Below, in pieces: positions 6,927 to 15,370 of a DNA stretch of 64,000 nt; within the stretch, counting starts at the first letter, position 1; each line of letters opens with the position of its first letter. The position numbers and the translations under genes were made by a program. A model generated the notes under the pieces. That model was not told the DNA's origin. It did not search any database and was given only the letters and a program-made list of their open reading frames with translations. Where the stretch lies: assembly GCF_020524355.2 (NCBI RefSeq), contig NZ_CP129019.1, positions 1,240,001 through 1,304,000 on the forward strand, given 5' to 3'. The stretch is from Mesobacillus subterraneus (GTDB taxonomy: Bacteria; Bacillota; Bacilli; Bacillales; Cytobacillaceae).

Positions 6927-7283
6927 CTAGAATACTCTCTTTTTTCCTTGTTCGTCCTTAAGAATCTCTACTGCTTCACGAAAGCGCTGAGAGTGGATGA
7001 TTTCGCGTTCTCTGAGGTATCGTAATCCATCGTTCAGATCAGTGTCATCGCTCATATTAATGATCCATTGATAAGTGGCACTTGCTTTTTCTTCGGCAGC
7101 AATATCTTCATATAAGTCTGCTATCGGGTCTCCTTTAGCAGCGATATAGGATGCAGTCCATGGCACACCAGCTGCATTATGGTAGAAGAGAGCGCTATCA
7201 TGGTTAGCGTAGTGCGCGTCAAGCCCAGCCTGCTTCATTTGATCAGGTGTTGCGTCCTTCGTCAATTTATATATTGTAACCAA
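6927..7283 (-). pseudogene. cotJC: cotJC, 3' fragment (codons 78-189)
   Basis: These are the C-terminal 112 codons of the spore-coat protein CotJC, a manganese-catalase relative. In the unrearranged state the open frame begins at a TTG inside the inserted element (7281-7283) and its first six residues come mainly from element DNA. From LTKDATPDQ onward the match to CotJC is continuous. This half holds the second pair of metal-ligand helices: DIAAEEKA and the E-x-x-H motif REIIH. No ribosome-binding site precedes the TTG, so the fragment is probably not translated until the element leaves. Excision joins it in frame to 14627-14857. Confidence 0.92.
7265..7274. other. left attachment-site core of the cotJC element
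   Basis: ATTTATATAT, to be compared with ATTTGTAAAT at 14626-14635; 8 of 10 positions agree. The exact crossover dinucleotide cannot be told, but exchange at any shared position of the core gives the same joined protein. Confidence 0.75.
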
Positions 7284-7341
7284 AATGCAACCATGCTAAA
7301 ATATTGATACATAAGGATTTTTGCGGACAGGAGAGGACAGC

Positions 7342-8886
7342 ATGGAAACAGTGCCAATGAACAAAATTAAAAAGGTTGCTATATACAGCAGGAAATCCAG
7401 ACCTGATGAAACTGAGGAAACACTCAAAAGACAGTTAGCTTTTCTTATTGATAAATGTGTAGAAAATAACTGGGAATTTGAAGTGTTTCAAGAATACGGT
7501 TCTTCACTAGATAGTAACAGACCTGAACTAAATAAAATGCTAGATAAAGTACAGTCATTTCACTATGACGCTGTTGTAGTTACAGATCAGGATAGATTAA
7601 GCAGAAGTACATTGGGATTTCATCAGGTAAAAGAAATTCTAACTAATTATGGAGTGCAGGTAGTAACCTCATCTAAGATATATGACTACACCACACAAGA
7701 AGATGACTTAATGTCTGATATGCAGTCTGTTGTAGCTAAGCAGGAATATTTAAACATTAAGAAAAGGCTTGTGAGGGGAAAAAGGCAGTCAGCTAAAGAC
7801 GGGAATTGGGTAGGTGGAAAAACCCCTATTGGATATAGTTACGATCATAAGACAAAGAAACTAACACCTGACGAGAACGCACCTACCATTAAAAGAATTT
7901 ATGATTTATATATGTCTGGAAATTCATCTACAGCCATTGAAAGAATTTTTGACTTAGAAGGAACGCTAACACCTTCAGGTTCAAAGTGGAACAAAGCAAG
8001 AATATCTGTAGTTTTATCTAATCCTGTTTATAAAGGTACTGTAATCTATGGAAAAACCAAAGTTTCAAAGGTAGATAAAAAGCCGTCAGGTTCTCCAAGA
8101 CAGCTGAAAACTGAGGAAAATGATCAGATTATTATTGAGAATGCACACACACCTATTGTTTCACCTGAGGATTGGGAAGCTGTAAGAACCATTAGAGAAG
8201 GTCGTCTGTCTAAGCCACCGTCAGCTAGGATAGGGAAGGTTATATTCACAGGCTTGATTAAATGTAGCTTGTGTGGAAGAACTCACAGCTTTCAACGAAG
8301 AAAAGGGAAAGAACTTAGGATTACATCATGTCAAACTAGGTATTATGATGATGACGGAGAGAAATATACTGTATGTAAAAATAAGGGTGTAAAGCTGGAA
8401 CTATTTGAATTAGTATTCTTTGCGAAGTTCCAACAGTTTGTAGATAAATTAGAATCCTATCTGGAAGCAGTAAAGCGGAACATGAAAGAGGATAATTCTA
8501 ATAATCCTGTTGACGAGAAAGCTATACAAACAGCTAATTTGAAAAAGGTTGAAGCAAGTATTAAAAGAGTACAGAAGGGCTTTATAGCTGAGATATATAC
8601 AGAGGAAGAAGCACAGAAAGAAATCAAGCGATTAAAGGAACAAAAAGAGTATATACAGGAACAAATAAGCAGGCTAGATACTAAATCTAAAGACGAGAAG
8701 GTTGACGAGTTACAAAGGACTTTAGACAAGCTAAAAAGCCTATTAGAAGGAAAGTCAGATTTAGAAACAAAAGATATAAATCAACTGCTTACCTCTATAA
8801 TTGATCGTATTGAATATAAAAGAGTTGGCGATCATAAAGCAGAGATTGAAATGAAAATCCACTATAAAGGTCAGTCTGAGGATTAA
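7342..8886 (+). CDS. large serine recombinase (SpoIVCA/SprA type)
   Basis: A 514-residue site-specific recombinase that should integrate and excise the element. Domains: N-terminal resolvase catalytic domain (about residues 12-150) with the YSRKS motif, Ser19 being the likely nucleophile, and DRLSR; a recombinase domain (about 165-280, GKTPIGYSYD through SNPVYKGTVIYGK); a zinc ribbon (CSLCGRTH, later cysteines in SCQTRYY and VCKNKG); and a long coiled coil (about 365-475) as in large serine integrases. The ATG at 7342 has GGAGAGG six bases upstream. It starts only 77 bp from the left core and reads away from it. No clear promoter lies between; CATAAGGAT at 7310-7318 is a weak sporulation-sigma match. 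Confidence 0.93.
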   Translation: METVPMNKIKKVAIYSRKSRPDETEETLKRQLAFLIDKCVENNWEFEVFQEYGSSLDSNRPELNKMLDKVQSFHYDAVVVTDQDRLSRSTLGFHQVKEILTNYGVQVVTSSKIYDYTTQEDDLMSDMQSVVAKQEYLNIKKRLVRGKRQSAKDGNWVGGKTPIGYSYDHKTKKLTPDENAPTIKRIYDLYMSGNSSTAIERIFDLEGTLTPSGSKWNKARISVVLSNPVYKGTVIYGKTKVSKVDKKPSGSPRQLKTEENDQIIIENAHTPIVSPEDWEAVRTIREGRLSKPPSARIGKVIFTGLIKCSLCGRTHSFQRRKGKELRITSCQTRYYDDDGEKYTVCKNKGVKLELFELVFFAKFQQFVDKLESYLEAVKRNMKEDNSNNPVDEKAIQTANLKKVEASIKRVQKGFIAEIYTEEEAQKEIKRLKEQKEYIQEQISRLDTKSKDEKVDELQRTLDKLKSLLEGKSDLETKDINQLLTSIIDRIEYKRVGDHKAEIEMKIHYKGQSED

Positions 8887-8900
8887 ATATATAAACGAGA

Positions 8901-8930
8901 ACTGTTAGGTTAACGCCTGACAGTTTTTTA
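8901..8930 (+). terminator. recombinase terminator
   Basis: ACTGTTAGG (8901-8909) pairs with CCTGACAGT (8916-8924), one G-U pair, then TTTTTT. Confidence 0.8.
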
Positions 8931-8939
8931 TTTTGGATA

Positions 8940-9545
8940 AAAGAATAATCCCCCTAATAGCTATTAAGCCATTAGAGGGATAGAATGATATTGAATTGCT
9001 TACGCCACTTCATTCACTACGTTCATTCAGTGTATATCTTATATGTATTATCTATTATTCTATGCTAGTAATTATTAGAGTAGTTATTAGTTATTGTTTT
9101 TAGTATCGGTGAGGAACTTTAGTTCCGAACTGGCGAAGCCATATTCTTTTATCTTTATTATAGTTATTTACAGTTCCTTAAAGGTTCCTTACCCTATAGT
9201 GTGCCAAAGCCCCACCTGATACAGGCAGTTTTTAAAGAAATTTTCTGGGAAGGCTGAAACCCTTGATATGACAGGGTTTTGTCAAAGGTAACATTTTAGG
9301 GATTAACCTTAATAGTCTTTGAGTAATATGAAAGTCAGTAAAACAGGGACTTTGTTAATCACACTATCTGTGACTTTCCTTGTGATTATTAAATCTCATG
9401 AACCCTTGATATTAAAGGCTTTTTAAAAGTTGTTAATCACAAGGTACTTTTAAGGGCTTATTGTACATAACGTGTAATACTCTAAAACACTTAAATCAGT
9501 GTAATAAAAAAATAGACTATACTAGGAAAAACCTTCCTTTTTATC
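8940..9545. other. gene-free A/T-rich stretch inside the element
   Basis: About 600 bp with no convincing gene. It holds an imperfect hairpin (CCCCCTAAT near 8951 with ATTAGAGGG near 8972), two copies of TTGTTAATCACA (9352-9363 and 9430-9441) with an inverted TGTGATTATTAA between them (9381-9392), and two copies of ACCCTTGATAT. It could be a leader, a protein-binding region or an old replication origin. Nothing in the sequence decides this. Confidence 0.5.
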
Positions 9546-9546
9546 G

Positions 9547-9552
9547 TATAAT
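9547..9552 (+). promoter_or_regulatory. -10 element upstream of the 9.6-kb gene pair
   Basis: TATAAT lies 24 bp before the ATG at 9576. I see no good -35 box 16-18 bp upstream. Confidence 0.45.
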
Positions 9553-9575
9553 GTACCTACTGAGGAGGCGGGTAA

Positions 9576-10034
9576 ATGAGTAAGAAAACGCTAAGTGATT
9601 TAATGGGGAAAAATTTTGACTTTGAAATGCCGAAATTAGCCCCTTTACCTACAGTAGAAAGACAGACCTTTGACACTAGTCATCTTGATGAGGCTATGGA
9701 GGAAATTGCTTTAGAGAAAGAAGAAAAAGAAAAGAAAGAACAGGAATACAGAGAATCGGTCATTAGCACATTACAAGGTATAGAAAAGAATACAGCACTG
9801 CTAGCAGAAATGACTTTACTTCTCCAAAAGAACAATGAAAAGCAAGACGATATGTTTGAACTAATGGTTGAGATACTAGCAATTATGAAAAGTTCAAATC
9901 AGGAAGAGGCTGAAAGCAAGTACACCGAAGTTATGAAAAAGATTACTACATTCACTGACAACGCTAGTACCGTCCAGTCACTTGTTAACATGGCACAGAC
10001 TGTGTTTAATGCTTATCAATCAATGCCATTTTAA
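9576..10034 (+). CDS. hypothetical coiled-coil protein in the element
   Basis: A 152-residue protein I do not recognise. Residues about 45-70 are extremely rich in glutamate and lysine (LEKEEKEKKEQEYRES), and a predicted coiled coil continues to about residue 115. There is no signal peptide or membrane segment. GAGGAGGCGG precedes the ATG. A second small gene follows 16 bp downstream, so they are probably co-transcribed. Coiled-coil proteins of this kind are frequent in phage and integrative-element cargo, but no function can be assigned. Confidence 0.75.
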   Translation: MSKKTLSDLMGKNFDFEMPKLAPLPTVERQTFDTSHLDEAMEEIALEKEEKEKKEQEYRESVISTLQGIEKNTALLAEMTLLLQKNNEKQDDMFELMVEILAIMKSSNQEEAESKYTEVMKKITTFTDNASTVQSLVNMAQTVFNAYQSMPF

Positions 10035-10050
10035 AAGGGGTGCTTATAGA

Positions 10051-10308
10051 ATGGAAAAAAAGACTTTTGAAGTTGAGGAACATCATTTAGTAGAAATCAA
10101 AGAAACGAAACCTTTTGGTAGTAATGGTTCACAAACTCGTACTTATCATTGGGAAGTTTTTATAGCTTCTAAAGGTACAGAATACCGTGGTAAGGCTATA
10201 GAACCTAAAGATCAAAAACGTGAAATACCGTGGATGACTATAGAAGAACATGAAATGAATCCTTTAGACTTTATGGTAGAGTGTATTGAAAGGAAATTTC
10301 ATAGATAA
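10051..10308 (+). CDS. hypothetical small acidic protein in the element
   Basis: An 85-residue soluble protein that I do not recognise (FEVEEHHLVEIKE to VECIERKFHR). The alternation of charged and hydrophobic residues and a WEVFIASKGTEYRGKAI stretch suggest a small beta fold. The ATG at 10051 has AAAAGGGGTG upstream; a longer reading from 9982 overlaps the previous gene in another frame and is not supported. A terminator follows directly. Confidence 0.65.
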   Translation: MEKKTFEVEEHHLVEIKETKPFGSNGSQTRTYHWEVFIASKGTEYRGKAIEPKDQKREIPWMTIEEHEMNPLDFMVECIERKFHR

Positions 10309-10313
10309 GATAA

Positions 10314-10338
10314 AGGCACTCGAAAGGGTGCTTTTTTT
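10314..10338 (+). terminator. terminator after the 9.6-10.3 kb gene pair
   Basis: GCACTC (10316-10321) with a GAAA loop and GGGTGC (10326-10331), followed by TTTTTTT. Confidence 0.8.
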
Positions 10339-10468
10339 ATTTGTGAAAAATGGAAATATGGTGGTGTGTTTAATGAATACAGTGACTGTGCATTCTTGTG
10401 CGTTAGAAACGCTTGCTTGCCCTTTGTATGGACAGCCTGCTAAAACTTTTTAATGCACAACGCCTGAG

Positions 10469-10486
10469 TTTACGATATTTCGTAAA
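10469..10486. repeat. inverted repeat in a gene-free gap
   Basis: TTTACGA (10469-10475) and TCGTAAA (10480-10486) are perfect 7-bp arms around TATT. The surrounding gap (10339-10585) has only a 26-codon open frame at 10374 that I do not support. Confidence 0.5.
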
Positions 10487-10599
10487 TAGCCCTAAGCGAT
10501 CTAGAGAAGCACATTAAAATACCACTGCACAATAGGACTAGTAAGTGCTGACTTCCTTTTGGTTCTAATATATAGAAATAAAAAAGAGGCTATCACATT

Positions 10600-11154
10600 T
10601 TACTGTGTAGCCTTCTTCTTTGCCCTTATAAGCGTACTTTTACTTATTCCTGTCATGCTTTCAACTTCTTTATAGGAATGGTCTTGTAACAGCTTTAATG
10701 CGTGTTCTACTTGATCTTTTTTGTACTTGTTAGGGCGACCCTCTCTAAAATCATCACGCTGTTTAGCTATCGCCTTGCCTTCCTGAGTACGTTCTACTAT
10801 CATATCTCTTTCAAACTCAGCAAAAGAACTCATGATATTGAATATAAGCCTTCCTGTGGGCGTGTCCTCAACTATTCCCATGTTCAAGACATGAACCCTT
10901 ACACCCTTTTTAAATAGCCCTTTAATGGTCTCTATAGCGTCACCAGTGGAACGTGCAAAGCGATCTAGTTTAGTTATTACTAATGTGTCACCTTCTTTAA
11001 GGATTGACAGCAACTCTTTAAACTTTGGGCGATCTGCTTTAGTTCCTGTGAATTTCTCAGAATATATTTCTTCACAGCCTTCATTTTTTAAAGTCTTAAT
11101 CTGTGCCTCTAAATCTTGATGTACTGTTGAAACCCTTGCATAACCGTATTTCAT
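10600..11154 (-). CDS. resolvase/invertase-type small serine recombinase
   Basis: A 184-residue protein of the Tn3 resolvase/Pin invertase family. YARVS at the N terminus gives the catalytic Ser9; KLDRFARS and the helix-E region [18 protein letters not shown] are typical; and the C-terminal helix-turn-helix ([22 protein letters not shown]) binds DNA. It lacks the long C-terminal domain of the recombinase at 7342. Its upstream region has a cluster of repeats like a res site, so it probably resolves multimers or inverts a segment. It may be left from an earlier plasmid or transposon stage. A hairpin at 10586-10613 with a T run on the minus strand ends transcription. Confidence 0.92.
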
Positions 11155-11181
11155 GAAAAACAGCCTCTTTTCAGTATGTAT

Positions 11182-11265
11182 TTATGACACTAAGTTATGA
11201 CACCTATTGACACCCTGATAATACAGCACCCTTAAAACGGTGTCAATACTTTTAAGTTATGACAC
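11182..11265. promoter_or_regulatory. res-like repeat cluster upstream of the resolvase
   Basis: TTATGACAC occurs three times in direct orientation (11182-11190, 11195-11203, 11257-11265). A perfect 10-bp inverted repeat TATTGACACC/GGTGTCAATA lies at 11205-11214 and 11239-11248. All share TGACAC. A group of related sites in direct and inverted orientation just upstream of a resolvase gene is the usual form of a resolution site and autorepression operator. Confidence 0.65.
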
Positions 11266-11471
11266 TTTTTTTATACAGCTATCAAAACTCAGCACATTTG
11301 ATAGAACCACTTGAACAACGTAACAATGCAGGTTTAGCTACTATCAAAAATCGCTGTCAAAATTGAAGGGTATCAGGGGATTAAAAGAAAGGGTTAGGGG
11401 TAGTCTATTAACCCCCTTGCTATACGCCTTACATAGTACCGTAGAAAGAAGGTTGGTCTGTTCTGAACAAG

Positions 11472-11666
11472 TTGATTGGTAAAGTAATAGAACGATACAC
11501 AGGGGCTACAGTGGAAGCATATAGGCATAGGGATAGATACAGCATAAGTAAGGCACTAAGGATAGAAGAACATCAGAACAATAGACAAGTGAAGCAAGTC
11601 AATCGAATGGACAAACAAAAGAAACGAATGAAAGAAAGAATGATAAGGCAAAGAGGTCATAGCTAG
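11472..11666 (+). CDS. possible small very basic protein
   Basis: A 64-codon open frame starting at TTG and very rich in arginine and lysine (MDKQKKRMKERMIRQRGHS at the end). There is no convincing ribosome-binding site and no recognisable family. It may be spurious; if real, its charge would suggest nucleic-acid binding. The flanks (11280-11470 and 11667-11860) show no other gene. Confidence 0.25.
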   Translation: MIGKVIERYTGATVEAYRHRDRYSISKALRIEEHQNNRQVKQVNRMDKQKKRMKERMIRQRGHS

Positions 11667-11694
11667 TCTGTAAATATGTGCTGTCTTTATGTGC

Positions 11695-11736
11695 GGGAAG
11701 GGGGGTATGCAGGGGGGACGGGGGGGTCTGTAGGGG
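11695..11736 (+). other. G-quadruplex-forming motif
   Basis: Five guanine runs on the plus strand: G3 (11695), G6 (11700-11705), G6 (11712-11717), G7 (11720-11726) and G4 (11733-11736), with loops AA, TATGCA, AC and TCTGTA. This satisfies the usual G3+N1-7 rule with spare runs. It stands out strongly in DNA that is otherwise A/T-rich. Confidence 0.8.
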
Positions 11737-11861
11737 TCGGTCTGCTGTATGCTAAATATATGCACCATTTTTGAAACTTTCAATGGATGTGTTTAAAAGT
11801 CTATAAAATATTTTTTTGGGGAAAGTTTTAATATTTAACTTCTATATATTTCCACAAGATA

Positions 11862-11870
11862 TGATATAAT
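11862..11870 (+). promoter_or_regulatory. extended -10 promoter of the SEC-C gene
   Basis: TGATATAAT is an extended -10 (TGnTATAAT) located 28 bp before the ATG at 11899. The -35 region is weak. Confidence 0.5.
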
Positions 11871-11898
11871 TTTACTAGAAAATATTAGGAGGGGTTTA

Positions 11899-12492
11899 AT
11901 GGTAAATGTACCTGCTTTTTGTGACAATTGTACCAATATTTTTCCATCAGGTTTTGTATTTGAGAATTGTGTAGGAGTGACAATGTCAGGTTGTACGTCT
12001 CAATGTCCTAGATGTGGATATTCTGCTAGAGTTCCAGACGGTGTATTTAACTTTTACAATAGTGCAATCGAGGTACTTGAAGCTACTCCAGAAACTATTA
12101 GAGACTTAAAAAAACTATTTGTAATTGTCGATAAAGCAAGTAGAGAAAATATTCCTCCAGAAGAAGTACATAAGGAGATTGAAGAGGAAGCACCTAAATT
12201 ATCCTTCTTAGCAAAATACCTTCCCAAGAATGCAAAAGAATTTGGAGTTTATCTAACAGCAGTTGCTTCGTTAATTGGAGGAATGGGTGGGGATATTGAA
12301 ATTAACCCAGAAATAAATATTAACCCTAAGACCGAAATTCAGTATTTTACCCCTGATAATAATATGAATCAGCAGCATATTTCTAATCTGGAAGTTAGCC
12401 CTACATCTGAAATGCCTAATAGAAAAATCGGTAGGAATGAACCTTGTCCGTGTCTAAGTGGGCTGAAATATAAATATTGTCATGGTAAATAA
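11899..12492 (+). CDS. SEC-C motif protein with N-terminal zinc ribbon
   Basis: A 197-residue protein. The C terminus is a SEC-C motif (RNEPCPCLSGLKYKYCHGK), the zinc-binding tail also found in SecA. The N terminus has CDNC and, after a gap, CPRCGY, a likely zinc ribbon. The middle is helical with an acidic stretch and no enzyme motif. SEC-C proteins of this kind are common cargo of mobile elements and are thought to mediate protein or nucleic-acid contacts; the actual role is unknown. TAGGAGGGG precedes the ATG. Confidence 0.8.
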   Translation: MVNVPAFCDNCTNIFPSGFVFENCVGVTMSGCTSQCPRCGYSARVPDGVFNFYNSAIEVLEATPETIRDLKKLFVIVDKASRENIPPEEVHKEIEEEAPKLSFLAKYLPKNAKEFGVYLTAVASLIGGMGGDIEINPEININPKTEIQYFTPDNNMNQQHISNLEVSPTSEMPNRKIGRNEPCPCLSGLKYKYCHGK

Positions 12493-12499
12493 AATGAAG

Positions 12500-12524
12500 C
12501 CCCTAGCATAAAAAACTAGGGGTT
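12500..12524. terminator. terminator between convergent element genes
   Basis: CCCCTAG (12500-12506) pairs with CTAGGGG (12516-12522). The right arm covers the stop codon of the minus-strand gene. Confidence 0.65.
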
Positions 12525-12917
12525 ATTTGTGTTGCTTTCAATAAGACCCTCAGCGATAAAGTGGTCTCTAATGATAACTGAATTAACTTTTATTTCACTG
12601 GCTATTTCTTTGTATGTGTAATCCTCTATGATCATCTGGTAAATTCTTTTGCTAATGTCCCTTGTTTTTCTTGTTCTATTTTGTTTTGATGATCTGACCT
12701 TTAACAGCCTTTCACCGTGGGCAGTACCATAAGGCATAGTACAAATATGTTTCTGATGATCTTTACCTAGCATGTAGCCAGCTTTATTGTAAAACACAGT
12801 GTTACATTTACTACAATGGAACTTCATTGAAGAGTGGTGGTTCAAATAGGGCGAAATAACCTTAACAGCCCCGTTGTAGGTCTTGTTAATCTTAGCTTCG
12901 TATTCTTGTTTATTCAT
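12516..12917 (-). CDS. small zinc-finger/helix-turn-helix protein
   Basis: A 133-residue protein. A CSKC pair at about residues 35-38, followed by HICTMPYG with a further Cys and His, looks like a small zinc-binding domain. The C-terminal part (YQMIIEDYTYKEIASEIKVN then IRDHFIAEGL) reads as a helix-turn-helix. Such proteins occur in integrative elements and phages as homing or regulatory DNA-binding proteins. GAAAGGAT precedes the ATG. Function not known. Confidence 0.65.
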   Translation of the reverse strand: MNKQEYEAKINKTYNGAVKVISPYLNHHSSMKFHCSKCNTVFYNKAGYMLGKDHQKHICTMPYGTAHGERLLKVRSSKQNRTRKTRDISKRIYQMIIEDYTYKEIASEIKVNSVIIRDHFIAEGLIESNTNNP

Positions 12918-12932
12918 GACATTATCCTTTCT

Positions 12933-13035
12933 TAACGACAGTTAGAAACTGTCTGAATAGTAAAGTATGTGACCTCAATTTACAGCCTCTACAGCCCTTG
13001 ATGTGTAAGGGGTCAGTCCATTCTAACTGTCGTTA
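12933..13035. repeat. 15-bp perfect inverted repeat flanking a gene gap
   Basis: TAACGACAGTTAGAA (12933-12947) and TTCTAACTGTCGTTA (13021-13035) are exact complements separated by 73 bp. The right arm contains the stop codon of the next minus-strand gene. The left arm lies 16 bp before the start of the previous one. Confidence 0.8.
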
Positions 13036-13383
13036 TTTAGCCCTCTTTTGATTGTATTTCACGTGTGATTGTTTCCTAGCTGACTTTCTGCAAATATCAC
13101 TGCAATATACAGTCCTGTTAGATACTGCATTAAAGCCTTTTCCACAACCAATACAAAACTTATCTATAACAGCTTCTTTGCCATAATATATAGCCTCAGC
13201 GGTAATATGGGATGGAAGTACAGCTTTTTCAAAATAACTACAGCTACAGTCGCTAGCTGGTATCTCTTTTCCTCGATACTCTCCACCAGAAATTAAAGGA
13301 CATTCTTTATCTAATAAAGCACAATGCCCCGCCACATAATTAGCACAGCTTGTCCTTACTAGTTTTTTTATTGCATTACACAT
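13033..13383 (-). CDS. cysteine-rich protein in the element
   Basis: A 116-residue protein with a dozen cysteines. The N-terminal part has a C-x4-C-x5-C-like pattern (SCANYVAGHCALLDKECPLI) and CSCSYF; the C-terminal part has FCIGCGKGF and VYCSDICRKSARKQ, a treble-clef/zinc-ribbon pattern seen in cysteine-rich proteins of Gram-positive integrative elements. The ATG at 13383 is preferred because AAAGGG lies nine bases upstream; a TTG nine bases earlier is too close to that site. Probable zinc binding; function unknown. Confidence 0.6.
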   Translation of the reverse strand: MCNAIKKLVRTSCANYVAGHCALLDKECPLISGGEYRGKEIPASDCSCSYFEKAVLPSHITAEAIYYGKEAVIDKFCIGCGKGFNAVSNRTVYCSDICRKSARKQSHVKYNQKRAK

Positions 13384-13411
13384 ATCTATCAATCCCTTTC
13401 AAATGTAAATT

Positions 13412-13442
13412 AAAAAGACCGTCAGCAATTTAGCTAACGGTC
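13412..13442 (-). terminator. terminator of the 13.5-kb minus-strand gene
   Basis: GACCGTCAGC (13417-13426) pairs with GCTAACGGTC (13433-13442, one mismatch). On the minus strand it is followed by TTTTTAATTT. Confidence 0.75.
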
Positions 13443-13454
13443 AATTTGTTTATT

Positions 13455-13805
13455 TTATCTGTCGTTCATTGCAAGACCAGCACGTGCCCTCGCTACTTTT
13501 GCTTTAACTTCTTTCTCTAAGTGTTCCTGTCTGATTTTTTCTTTACGTTCCTCAGCCTCTCTTAGCAACCTATTACGTTCTGCTAATGCTTCTCCAACAG
13601 CTTCATCGTTTACGTAAGCACTTTGTTTTTCCTCATAAAGAGAGAAGCCACTATTCATTGGAACAATGCTTTCATCCCGTCTCATCTGATCTACAGCAGT
13701 ACCTAAAGCAATTCGAGTTGGTATTGGTAAATCCTTAATCTGTTCCTGTGCTTGCTTATCTCCATGTGCTAATGCCTTTACTAGTTCCGGATTAAAGTTT
13801 GTCAT
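13455..13805 (-). CDS. hypothetical charged protein in the element
   Basis: A 116-residue soluble protein that I do not recognise. The N-terminal half is mixed (ELVKALAHGDKQAQEQ); the C-terminal half is a long charged helix (AERNRLLREAEERKEKIRQE). GAAAGAGGG precedes the ATG. It lies downstream of a putative regulator (13833-14111) on the same strand with a 27-bp gap, so they may be one unit. Confidence 0.65.
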   Translation of the reverse strand: MTNFNPELVKALAHGDKQAQEQIKDLPIPTRIALGTAVDQMRRDESIVPMNSGFSLYEEKQSAYVNDEAVGEALAERNRLLREAEERKEKIRQEHLEKEVKAKVARARAGLAMNDR

Positions 13806-13832
13806 TGTTAGAACCCTCTTTCTAATGTTTTT

Positions 13833-14111
13833 TTACTTGTAGCCTTTTCTTTCCTTTAATTCAATTATGTTTTTAATTGAAGCTAGTTCAGCATTTGAAA
13901 TTCTCAGACGCTGAATTGCGTACTTTAGTTTCTTTTCATAGTGTGCGGTAAATGCTAGTTTTCGTGTTTCTAGTTTTGCAATAGTGCTTGGGTCAATGCC
14001 CATGTACTCACTAAAATCAACCTGTGTTTTATTTCTGGAAAGTCTAATTAGCTTTATATACCTTTGATCATATTCCATGTTGTAAGGTAAGCGGTTATTA
14101 GCTGGTTTCAC
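13833..14111 (-). CDS. small XRE-like helix-turn-helix protein
   Basis: A 92-residue protein. The region LIRLSRNKTQVDFSEYMG then IDPSTIAKLETRKLAF fits a Cro/CI-type helix-turn-helix, followed by a helical tail. The GTG at 14109-14111 is preferred because AAGGAGG lies seven bases upstream; a longer reading from a TTG at 14174 has no such site. It probably regulates genes at the right end of the element. A perfect palindromic site at 14188-14203 lies upstream. Confidence 0.65.
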   Translation of the reverse strand: MKPANNRLPYNMEYDQRYIKLIRLSRNKTQVDFSEYMGIDPSTIAKLETRKLAFTAHYEKKLKYAIQRLRISNAELASIKNIIELKERKGYK

Positions 14112-14187
14112 TGTCTTCCTCCTTAGTGGTTCTGTTTTTATGGAATAGAAGTTCAAATAAAAAAGGAATGGCAACAGCCATACCTTA

Positions 14188-14203
14188 TTAAGAGAACTCT
14201 TAA
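14188..14203. promoter_or_regulatory. palindromic possible operator
   Basis: TTAAGAG-AA-CTCTTAA has perfect 7-bp arms. It lies between the divergent XRE-like gene and the 48-codon gene, where a repressor site would be expected. A smaller repeat GGGAA/TTCCC lies at about 14216-14231. Confidence 0.4.
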
Positions 14204-14363
14204 GTCTATACCGTAGGGAACTTTAATTCCCCTTAATACTATGTGCAGGAAAGGGGAGGGCGGTACAGGTTCCCCAGAATAAAAATTAAAATATATGTCC
14301 TAATATAGGTAGAGTTTGCAAGTTCTTTACCGAGTGGGAGGTTATTGGACATTCTCTAACACT

Positions 14364-14371
14364 CATACATT
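14364..14371 (+). promoter_or_regulatory. sigma-E-like -10 element upstream of the 48-codon gene
   Basis: CATACATT matches the sigma-E -10 consensus CATACANT at every fixed position, and the identical octamer precedes the sporulation gene ypjB at 61351. The expected -35 region (around 14342-14349, TTATTGGA) is a poor match. So it is a candidate only. Confidence 0.4.
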
Positions 14372-14392
14372 CGGTTAGGGACGGTGAACAGC

Positions 14393-14539
14393 ATGATAAA
14401 ACATCATGAAAATGAAATTGTTATTGTAGATGACAAAACTGTTGAGGTAAAAGGAATAGGAAAAGCTGAGGACGTAGGGGAATTGGATATGGATAAATTT
14501 ATAGAAGTTGCGATGGGATTACCTTCATTTTGGAGGTGA
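14393..14539 (+). CDS. 48-residue protein at the right end, candidate excision factor
   Basis: Translation from the ATG at 14393 gives 48 residues beginning MIKHHENEIVIVDDKTVEV and ending GLPSFWR before TGA. GGTGA lies five bases before the start. The protein is small and acidic with no known domain. In SPbeta the excision factor SprB is a small protein encoded near the att site, made in the mother cell, that turns the serine recombinase toward excision. Position, size and the upstream CATACATT make this the best candidate here. That role is inference; no sequence similarity to SprB was tested. Confidence 0.55.
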   Translation: MIKHHENEIVIVDDKTVEVKGIGKAEDVGELDMDKFIEVAMGLPSFWR

Positions 14540-14623
14540 TCCTTTTTTTTATGTAAATTTATCGGTGCAGTTATATAATAAGGAAGATTAACGTAAAATA
14601 TATTATTGCACTTTAGAAATGAT

Positions 14624-14857
14624 CTATTTGTAAATCATTGTGGCGATCATTTCCAAATGAGCGAATTCTTCAGTACCAATATCAGTCAATAACCCGATTA
14701 CTTTATCCGGAATTGTATATCGCTGGTTTAAGTATCTTAGTGCTGCAGCAAGCTCCCCATCAGCTCCGCCGTATTGCTCTACAAGGAATTTAGCAAGCAT
14801 GGGATTACAGGTGCTTACTTTTACGGGATACTGTAATTTTTTTTCATAAAGCCACAT
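14624..14857 (-). pseudogene. cotJC: cotJC, 5' fragment (codons 1-77)
   Basis: CotJC is a spore-coat/spore-surface protein of the manganese-catalase family. This half runs MWLYEKKLQYPVKV to IATMIYK and then meets TAG, whose last two bases belong to the element. It holds the first metal-ligand helices: Glu35 (GADGELAAAL) and the E-x-x-H motif TEEFAHLE (Glu64, His67). Joined to the 3' part it gives 189 residues, the length of B. subtilis CotJC. The gene follows cotJB with a 40-bp gap; GGAGGGGG precedes the ATG. Without excision a 77-residue product lacking half the metal site would be made. Confidence 0.93.
14626..14635. other. right attachment-site core of the cotJC element
   Basis: ATTTGTAAAT, matching 8 of 10 positions of the left core ATTTATATAT. 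The reverse complement contains the cotJC codons ATT-TAC-AAA (Ile-Tyr-Lys, codons 75-77). On the element side the next in-frame codon is the stop TAG. Confidence 0.75.
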
Positions 14858-14897: not shown

Positions 14898-15143
14898 CTA
14901 TGGACCTTCTTTCCAGTCCCATGGATATCCAGAATAGCTGTTTCCGTATTGCTGGAGAGGCCCATACATGCTTTCAACGACCTTTTTTAATCTGCGCCTT
15001 TCTTTTGCAAACTGATTGAATTGGTTAATCGCATCATAGTCCTCTGGATGGGTATCTAAGTATAAGGTTAGATCAACGAGAACAAAATCGACTGCCTGGA
15101 GCTCTTCCATGGCAGCATAAAATTCCTTTGGCAACTGTTTCAT
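14898..15143 (-). CDS. cotJB: spore coat protein CotJB
   Basis: An 81-residue protein with the CotJB features: LPKEFYAAMEELQAVDFVLV, LYLDTHPEDYDAINQFNQ and a C-terminal YPWDWKEGPW-like end. B. subtilis CotJB is of similar length. Its ATG overlaps the cotJA stop (4 bp). It acts with CotJA and CotJC in the inner spore coat; the three proteins depend on one another for assembly in B. subtilis. It is intact, so only the third cistron of the operon is interrupted. Confidence 0.92.
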   Translation of the reverse strand: MKQLPKEFYAAMEELQAVDFVLVDLTLYLDTHPEDYDAINQFNQFAKERRRLKKVVESMYGPLQQYGNSYSGYPWDWKEGP

Positions 15144-15370
15144 GAGTGATCATCCTCCCTTGGAGCTTCGTATGGCGAATACCAAGGATCATAGAAAACC
15201 TTCCACAGTGTCCCTGTTCTTAAAGCTTGCATGGGCGTAAACTGCTCTAGATTGGGCGGCTGGAAGCCAAGAAATAAATTTGGCGGCGTAGAGAACGTTT
15301 TTACCTTAATAGGCGGACAAGGATCGAAGGGACTGGCGTACGGATACCATACTCTTCTGTGTGTAGACAA
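15140..15370 (-). CDS. cotJA: spore coat protein CotJA
   Basis: A 76-residue proline-rich protein with the family core SPFDPCPPIKVKTFSTPPN, LGFQPPNLEQF and GTLWKVFYDPWY. It is the first gene of the cotJABC operon. The TTG start is supported by GGAGGG six bases upstream; no ATG or GTG lies nearby. It is probably made in the mother cell, as the upstream CATAAAAT element suggests and as is known for B. subtilis cotJ (sigma-E). Confidence 0.9.
   Translation of the reverse strand: MSTHRRVWYPYASPFDPCPPIKVKTFSTPPNLFLGFQPPNLEQFTPMQALRTGTLWKVFYDPWYSPYEAPREDDHS

What the first reader, a model, noticed from the sequence alone, without database searches (positions are those of the whole stretch)
6927..14857. 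cotJC is split by a 7.36-kb element that should be removed precisely to rebuild the coat gene
The two halves of cotJC lie on the same strand, in the correct order, 7.36 kb apart. Removing the DNA between the matching cores at 7265 and 14626 joins codon 77 (Lys) to codon 78 (Leu) and gives exactly 189 residues with ATMIYKLTKDATP across the junction, the family pattern. A large serine recombinase lies 77 bp from one end. This is the layout of sporulation-specific gene-intervening elements known in sigK, spsM, spoVFB and gerE. I do not know of one described in cotJC. The element has no recognisable phage structural genes, so it would be a minimal excision system.
Basis: partly seen in the sequence, partly recalled or inferred. 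Interest (0 to 1): 0.95.

Follow-up and report, generated by a model that had tools for sequence, protein, structure and literature searches.

The report
Self-excising element inside coat gene cotJC
The spore-coat gene cotJC of this bacterium is split by a 7.4-kb mobile element that carries its own recombinase and a likely excision helper, and the element is predicted to cut itself out while a spore forms and so rejoin the gene; related elements split the same gene at the same codon in 14 other genomes, one of them with only those two recognisable genes.

Summary
cotJC is split between codons 77 and 78 by a 7,361-bp element; removing it gives an open 189-residue CotJC. The genome has no second CotJC, and 18 of 21 genus genomes have it intact.

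Relatives strengthen the interpretation. Of 17 distinct loci with this large serine recombinase or a piece of it, 15 split cotJC at this codon, and none of those 15 genomes showed an intact copy. Junctions point to an AA crossover flanked by inverted TGCAA arms.

Opposite the recombinase, 14 of 15 elements encode a 48-59-residue protein, my candidate directionality factor. One 2,076-bp element holds only these two recognisable genes. Upstream of the small gene, 12 of 13 elements examined carry GACA-N11/12-CATA, against 6 of 631 control ORFs. It resembles a SpoIIID box plus a sigma-E -10 site, predicting mother-cell excision as in C. difficile skin. Two elements are inverted; one crossed between species recently.

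No excision was observed. Promoter and directionality-factor roles are inferred. No cotJC element was found in the held literature.

The parts
14627..14857 (-). cotJC 5' piece, codons 1-77; in-frame TAG at 14626-14624
6927..7265 (-). cotJC 3' piece, codons 78-189 and stop
7266..14626 (.). intervening element, 7,361 bp
   Evidence: removal restores 189 aa; GC 35.7% against 41.2% for the window
7266..7290 (-). junction beside the recombinase: core AA (7268-7267) and arm with TTGCA box (7290-7286, minus-strand reading)
14606..14629 (-). junction beside the small gene: core AA (14629-14628) and arm with TGCAA box (14610-14606, minus-strand reading)
7274..7302 (+). sigma-A-like promoter of the recombinase: TTGTAA, 17 bp, TGC-TAAAAT, overlapping the arm
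   Evidence: same form in 10 of 13 recombinase upstream regions examined; prediction
7342..8886 (+). large serine recombinase, 514 aa
   Evidence: Pfam and PHROG matches; nearest solved structure is SPbeta YokA/SprA
14347..14371 (+). GGACATTC..CATACATT: SpoIIID-like box and sigma-E-like -10 before the small gene
   Evidence: prediction
14393..14539 (+). 48-aa protein, candidate recombination directionality factor
   Evidence: homologue opposite the recombinase in 14 of 15 elements; 64 homologues by profile
10600..11154 (-). small serine resolvase/invertase-like protein, 184 aa (cargo)
   Evidence: 82% identical in L048
13833..14174 (-). helix-turn-helix regulator (cargo)
   Evidence: relatives in L024, L028, L048
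9576..13805 (.). other cargo: 9576-10034 +, 10051-10308 +, SEC-C protein 11899-12492 +, 12516-12917 -, 13033-13392 -, 13455-13805 -
   Evidence: no phage structural or packaging match among the 10 element proteins scanned
14898..15370 (-). cotJB (14898-15143) and cotJA (15140-15370), upstream genes of the cotJ operon
   Evidence: names by position and recalled family; relatives lie beside cotJC in most of the split loci

Best explanation
The 7,361-bp element splits cotJC between codons 77 and 78 and is predicted to be cut out in the mother cell during sporulation by its own large serine recombinase working with a likely 48-residue directionality factor, which would rebuild the 189-residue CotJC. 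Shown: the split, the frame-perfect join, an intact recombinase, the same split without a spare copy in 14 other genomes, the junction arms, the conserved small protein at the far end and the motif in front of it. Inferred: the recombinase is made all the time from a sigma-A-like promoter in its att arm; SpoIIID and sigma-E switch on the small protein only in the mother cell; that protein turns the recombinase from integration to excision across the AA core; the forespore keeps the element and passes it on through the spore, while the dying mother cell makes whole CotJC.
For: Join restores 189 aa; 18 of 21 congeners intact. 15 of 17 recombinase loci are in cotJC, and all 15 of those genomes showed only the two pieces. 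Joined CotJC is open in 13 of 13 elements with both ends held (189 aa in 12, 188 in L048). Arm boxes at fixed distance: 12 of 13 N sides, 13 of 15 C sides. Small protein in 14 of 15 elements and in the two-gene element L034. Motif GACA-N11/12-CATA before it in 12 of 13, against 6 of 631 control ORFs. Sigma-A-like promoter on the recombinase in 10 of 13. C. difficile skin works by the same predicted division: constitutive recombinase, small factor under sigma-E and SpoIIID (passages of PMC5025042). The halves changed almost only synonymously against the nearest intact relative: 15 to 0 and 25 to 3.
Against: No excision product, expression data or reads were available. The sigma-E -35 match is weak. 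The motif with 9-14-nt spacing is not upstream of the own sigK. L058 has AATA for CATA. G290 has only a 29-residue homologue of the small protein at that end. The SpoIIID consensus is recalled, not found in print, and 9-of-10 matches to it are common (510 of 63,991 window positions). The small protein resembles no known directionality factor. The synonymous pattern may partly predate insertion. L029 shows that a 45% relative can sit elsewhere.
Confidence: 0.85

Rival explanations
1. The element is a plain insertion that inactivated cotJC. The coat gene is dispensable, so split strains persist and the halves are slowly decaying remnants.
For: CotJC-type proteins appear dispensable in C. difficile (PMC11222575 passage citing others). 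No excision has been seen here. A cotJC with overlapping frames exists in G001.
Against: Halves are open and rejoin in frame in 13 of 13 elements tested. 15 synonymous to 0 and 25 to 3 non-synonymous changes. Recombinase without internal stop in all 15 coding stretches read. Small gene kept in 14 of 15.
Confidence: 0.08
2. The element is an integrative mobile element that excises to move, at random or on stress. Rebuilding cotJC is a by-product and not tied to sporulation.
For: Recent horizontal transfer between two genomes of one genus. The larger elements carry cargo. The recombinase has a vegetative-looking promoter.
Against: Before the small gene lies a SpoIIID/sigma-E-like motif in 12 of 13 elements. 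Two-gene L034 has no visible transfer functions. The target is a sporulation gene in 15 of 17 loci.
Confidence: 0.12
3. Excision is real and sporulation-regulated, but the 48-aa protein is not the directionality factor; another cargo product, such as the helix-turn-helix protein, does that job.
For: No similarity of the small protein to any PDB chain at E <= 1 that is meaningful, nor to any Pfam, PHROG or NCBIfam family. G290 has only a 29-residue version.
Against: It is the only other recognisable gene in L034. Its two subfamilies follow the recombinase subfamilies. The helix-turn-helix protein is found in few relatives.
Confidence: 0.1

Closest known systems
skin element of Clostridioides difficile (in sigK; recombinase CD1231, factor CD1234)
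   Same: Large serine recombinase with a sigma-A promoter; a small directionality factor under sigma-E and SpoIIID; excision rebuilds a mother-cell gene (passages of PMC5025042)
   Different: Different gene (cotJC); much smaller elements (from 2.1 kb); no direct sequence comparison with CD1231 or CD1234 was made here
gin element in gerE of Bacillus cereus ATCC10987 (GirC/GirX)
   Same: Non-phage intervening element with serine recombinases; predicted AA cleavage dinucleotide; extra small factor needed (abstract, part of Results and Discussion of PMC5595907)
   Different: 28.6 kb with 31 genes in gerE; 9-bp shared sequence; here the junctions share only a few bases
SPbeta prophage in spsM (SprA/YokA with SprB/YotN)
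   Same: Nearest recombinase with solved structure and best listed phage match, 29.8% identity over 95%; rebuilds a sporulation gene
   Different: Active >120-kb phage; its factor shows no sequence match to the 48-aa protein
vfbin (spoVFB), the spoVR element, yin (yabG) and B. subtilis skin (sigK)
   Same: Mother-cell sporulation genes split by elements with their own recombination unit (passages)
   Different: Other genes; sequences not compared here

Membership tests
Sporulation gene-intervening element | Interrupts a gene used in sporulation | tested here: met
   cotJC split after codon 77; that cotJC is a mother-cell coat gene is recalled
Sporulation gene-intervening element | Precise removal restores the reading frame | tested here: met
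   189 aa in the window; open in 13 of 13 elements tested
Sporulation gene-intervening element | Carries its own site-specific recombinase near an end | tested here: met
   514-aa large serine recombinase, 77 bp from codon 78
Sporulation gene-intervening element | Recombination sites at both junctions | tested here: met
   Fixed-distance arm boxes and AA core bracketed by synonymous bases
Sporulation gene-intervening element | Encodes a directionality factor | tested here: inconclusive
   Conserved 48-59-aa protein in 14 of 15 elements; activity not tested
Sporulation gene-intervening element | Sporulation-specific control | tested here: inconclusive
   Motif in 12 of 13 against 6 of 631; same-spacing motif absent at own sigK
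Sporulation gene-intervening element | Excision seen in sporulating mother cells | not testable with these tools
   Needs PCR, blots or reads
Prophage | Phage structural or packaging genes | tested here: not met
   No structural or packaging PHROG or Pfam match among 10 element proteins of the window; the larger relatives were not scanned
Integrative and conjugative element | Conjugation genes | tested here: not met
   None among the 10 element proteins scanned

The most novel reading that the evidence does not exclude
cotJC is home to a widespread, horizontally moving lineage of DNA-level introns. Its stripped-down form is two genes and two half-sites in about 2.1 kb: a constitutive recombinase and a mother-cell-switched directionality factor. 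Phage functions are not needed, and either orientation works because a two-base core alone sets polarity. It is the smallest self-contained developmental gene-splicing unit in bacteria that I know of.
Probability: 0.55. Interest if true: 0.85.

Novelty: new variant of a known kind. Interest (0 to 1): 0.78.

Why it matters
It would add cotJC, a coat protein related to manganese catalases, to the short list of genes rebuilt by programmed DNA excision during sporulation. It would also supply at least 15 natural replicates with mapped recombination sites, a new candidate directionality-factor family, and a 2-kb form small enough to rebuild in B. subtilis. The conserved motif makes the question of how mobile elements tap into mother-cell control directly testable. 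The two inverted members offer a natural test of whether the core dinucleotide alone sets orientation.

Tried and rejected
Long shared core: rejected; in register the two junctions share only AAAT plus scattered bases. Palindromic TA or AT core, to explain the inverted elements: rejected because synonymous bases bracket the AA region and the arm distances fit that centre. Sigma-K promoter for the small gene: the spacing does not fit the gap stated in PMC517825. Homology of the 48-aa protein to SprB/YotN: no match. Phage, plasmid or viral-contig relatives: best listed phage identity 29.8%, best listed plasmid 26.8%, no viral contig by recombinase patterns or by one exact degenerate att pattern. 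Own sigK as positive control for the motif: not found at 9-14-nt spacing. Defence cargo: only weak SEC-C and helix-turn-helix matches. My early note that the host is probably Rossellomorea is not borne out: the R. aquimaris record lies in another family; I do not name the host. My note of the small gene in 9 of 9 was superseded by the larger set.
Full report
WHAT IS THERE. On the minus strand, cotJA, cotJB and the first 77 codons of cotJC (15370-14627) are followed by 7,361 bp of other DNA and then by codons 78-189 (7265-6927). Joining the flanks gives one open frame of 189 residues. In the unjoined DNA a TAG follows codon 77. A search of the own genome with the Mn-catalase family finds the two pieces and one paralogue in a 304-aa frame, and no spare CotJC. 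Among 21 genus genomes (own included) CotJC is full length in 18, at 87-98% identity. It is split in the own genome, read in two overlapping frames in G001, and in the 66%-complete G010 only weak paralogues match.

THE ELEMENT RECURS AT ONE CODON. The recombinase was sought in genome contigs and in 193 family, 397 order and 398 class genomes; these sets overlap. At E <= 1e-90 it occurs in 3 of 193, 10 of 397 and 3 of 398, the own genome counted each time. Together with the seven loci, four of which are the same records as order hits, this makes 17 distinct loci. Fifteen lie in cotJC: window, L024, L025, G516 (L026+L052), G325 (L027+L053), L028, L034, G081 (L035+L036), L047, L048, L049+L067, L050+L066, L051, L057 and L058. 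The two others are a Turicibacter MAG (L029, 45% identity) and a recombinase piece without an open frame of 90 aa in Halobacillus (L030). Both of these genomes have a CotJC relative in one piece. In each of the 15 genomes, at the thresholds used, CotJC appears only as an N piece (residues 1 to about 78) and a C piece; C-piece starts scatter because the match runs a little into the element. In G290 and G455 the two pieces lie on different contigs. The 13 genomes fall in 12 genera, and the own genus makes 13.

HOSTS. Records name Rossellomorea aquimaris (two strains), Pseudalkalibacillus spartinae, Pontibacillus yanchengensis and Schinkia azotoformans.

SIZES. L034 2,076 bp; L057 2,658; L058 3,911; L025 6,849; window 7,361; L024 7,398; L048 9,443; L028 10,588; L047 13,408; G516 13,750; G325 13,821; L051 14,271; G081 15,268. 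Most are; L028, L057 and L058 follow from the coordinates (one search had L028 off by three). L034 holds the recombinase and the small gene and nothing else recognisable.

THE ATT SITES. On the N side a TGC[AT]A box starts 16 nt after codon 77 in 12 of 13 elements, and also in L066 and L067. On the C side a T[AT]GCA box ends 20 nt before the end of codon 77 in 13 of 15 (L057 and L058 deviate). The arms are symmetric about a hexamer whose centre is AA, the first two bases of Lys77. Where host and element differ at flanking synonymous positions, the switch falls there. The Tyr codon has C on the N side and T on the C side in the window, G516 and L051; the Lys codon has A on the N side and G on the C side in L024, L028 and L050/L066. 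This assumes no later synonymous change. The published gin element also has a predicted AA cleavage dinucleotide.

TWO INVERTED MEMBERS. In 13 elements the recombinase lies beside the C piece; in L024 and L057 it lies beside the N piece, and in L024 the arms are swapped with it. Removal still leaves a 189-residue CotJC. Since AA is not a palindrome, an attP with the opposite core, or an inversion resolved at the core, would be needed; this is inference.

THE SMALL PROTEIN. At the end opposite the recombinase lies a protein of 48-59 aa in 14 of 15 elements. It has two subfamilies (alignment) that follow the recombinase subfamilies (identity table). The fifteenth, G290, shows only a 29-residue homologue at that end. 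A profile search found 64 homologues; where a source gives a name it is nearly always 'hypothetical protein'. It matches no Pfam, PHROG or NCBIfam family and no PDB chain convincingly. I take it as the directionality factor because of its place, its persistence in the two-gene element and the coupling of subfamilies.

CONTROL. GACA-N11/12-CATA lies in the 100 nt before this gene in 12 of 13 elements examined, the CATA ending 23-41 nt before the start. The same test hits 6 of 631 upstream regions of mechanical ORFs of at least 60 aa in 16 of the loci. The exception, L058, reads AATA. These 13 are related, so they are not 13 independent trials. The GACA half fits the recalled SpoIIID consensus WWRRACARNY in 8 to 10 of 10 positions (8 of 13 perfect). 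Such matches are not rare by themselves: at least 9 of 10 at 510, and 10 of 10 at 30, of 63,991 window positions. I did not find that consensus in print in the held library. CATACATT in the window, L024, L034 and L057 fits the recalled sigma-E -10. The recombinase instead has TTGnnn-17-TGnTAnnnT in 10 of 13 upstream regions examined (not G081, L050, L051), in or beside the att arm, a sigma-A-like promoter. So the recombinase would be constant and the directionality factor mother-cell specific, as shown for C. difficile skin (passages of PMC5025042). Against this, -35 matches are weak, and no such motif with 9-14-nt spacing lies upstream of the own sigK.

MOBILITY AND SELECTION. L048 and L049/L067 are two genomes of one genus. 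On the recombinase side, 1,499 of the last 1,500 element bases are identical up to the core, then only 76 of 100 and 172 of 233 in cotJC. On the other side, 3,253 aligned bases starting right after codon 77 are 99.6% identical, while the N pieces match at 182 of 231. Part of the interior does not align. So an element crossed recently between two species, with both breakpoints at codon 77. G516 and G325, in different families, have 95% identical recombinases and 88% identical CotJC. The window's pieces against L008 show 15 synonymous and 0 non-synonymous changes (N) and 25 and 3 (C); part of this may predate insertion.

FUNCTIONAL SENSE OF THE SPLIT. CotJC aligns to Mn catalases 6j42, 4r42 and 1jku. 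Glu35, Glu64 and His67 fall in the N piece and the remaining candidate Glu and His in the C piece (ligand roles recalled), so neither piece should hold the metal pair alone.

WHAT IS KNOWN. Elements are published in sigK, spsM, spoVFB, spoVR, gerE and yabG (PMC5595907: abstract, first part of Results, Discussion; PMC10747680 and PMC6957869: passages). Searches for cotJC with intervening element, prophage, recombinase or serine integrase returned listings in which I saw no such element; broader listings show none by title. Most listed papers were not opened, and subscription papers are not held. PMC11222575 mentions a C. difficile CotJC-like gene adjacent to prophage phi027 (passages); I did not test whether that prophage splits it.

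VERDICT. A gene-intervening element of the known sporulation kind, in a gene not reported before in what I could search, with its own recombinase and small-protein families and a two-gene minimal form. The anatomy is shown; excision timing and the role of the small protein are predictions.

Noticed in passing
window 10600-11154: A second, small serine recombinase (184 aa, resolvase/invertase-like) inside the element, 82% identical in L048; possibly resolves circles, like the extra recombinases of gin.
   Followed up: partly
L029:3181-4994: Turicibacter MAG: a 45% identical recombinase followed at once by a homologue of the small protein, outside cotJC; the nearest relative of the unit at another site.
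   Followed up: partly
L050, frame starting near 2001: A second piece resembling the small protein lies outside the element, beyond the cotJC C piece, in G290; an old insertion scar or a chance match.
   Followed up: no
G001:C239:51424-51989: cotJC of one congener is read in two overlapping frames (1-109 and 104-189): a frameshift or assembly error, not this element.
   Followed up: no
window 7342-8886: Below cut-off, the recombinase and the small resolvase both match NCBIfam XisF, the fdxN-element excision recombinase of cyanobacteria, another developmental excision system.
   Followed up: no
window 11899-12492: Element cargo with a C-terminal SEC-C motif; weak PADLOC matches only.
   Followed up: no
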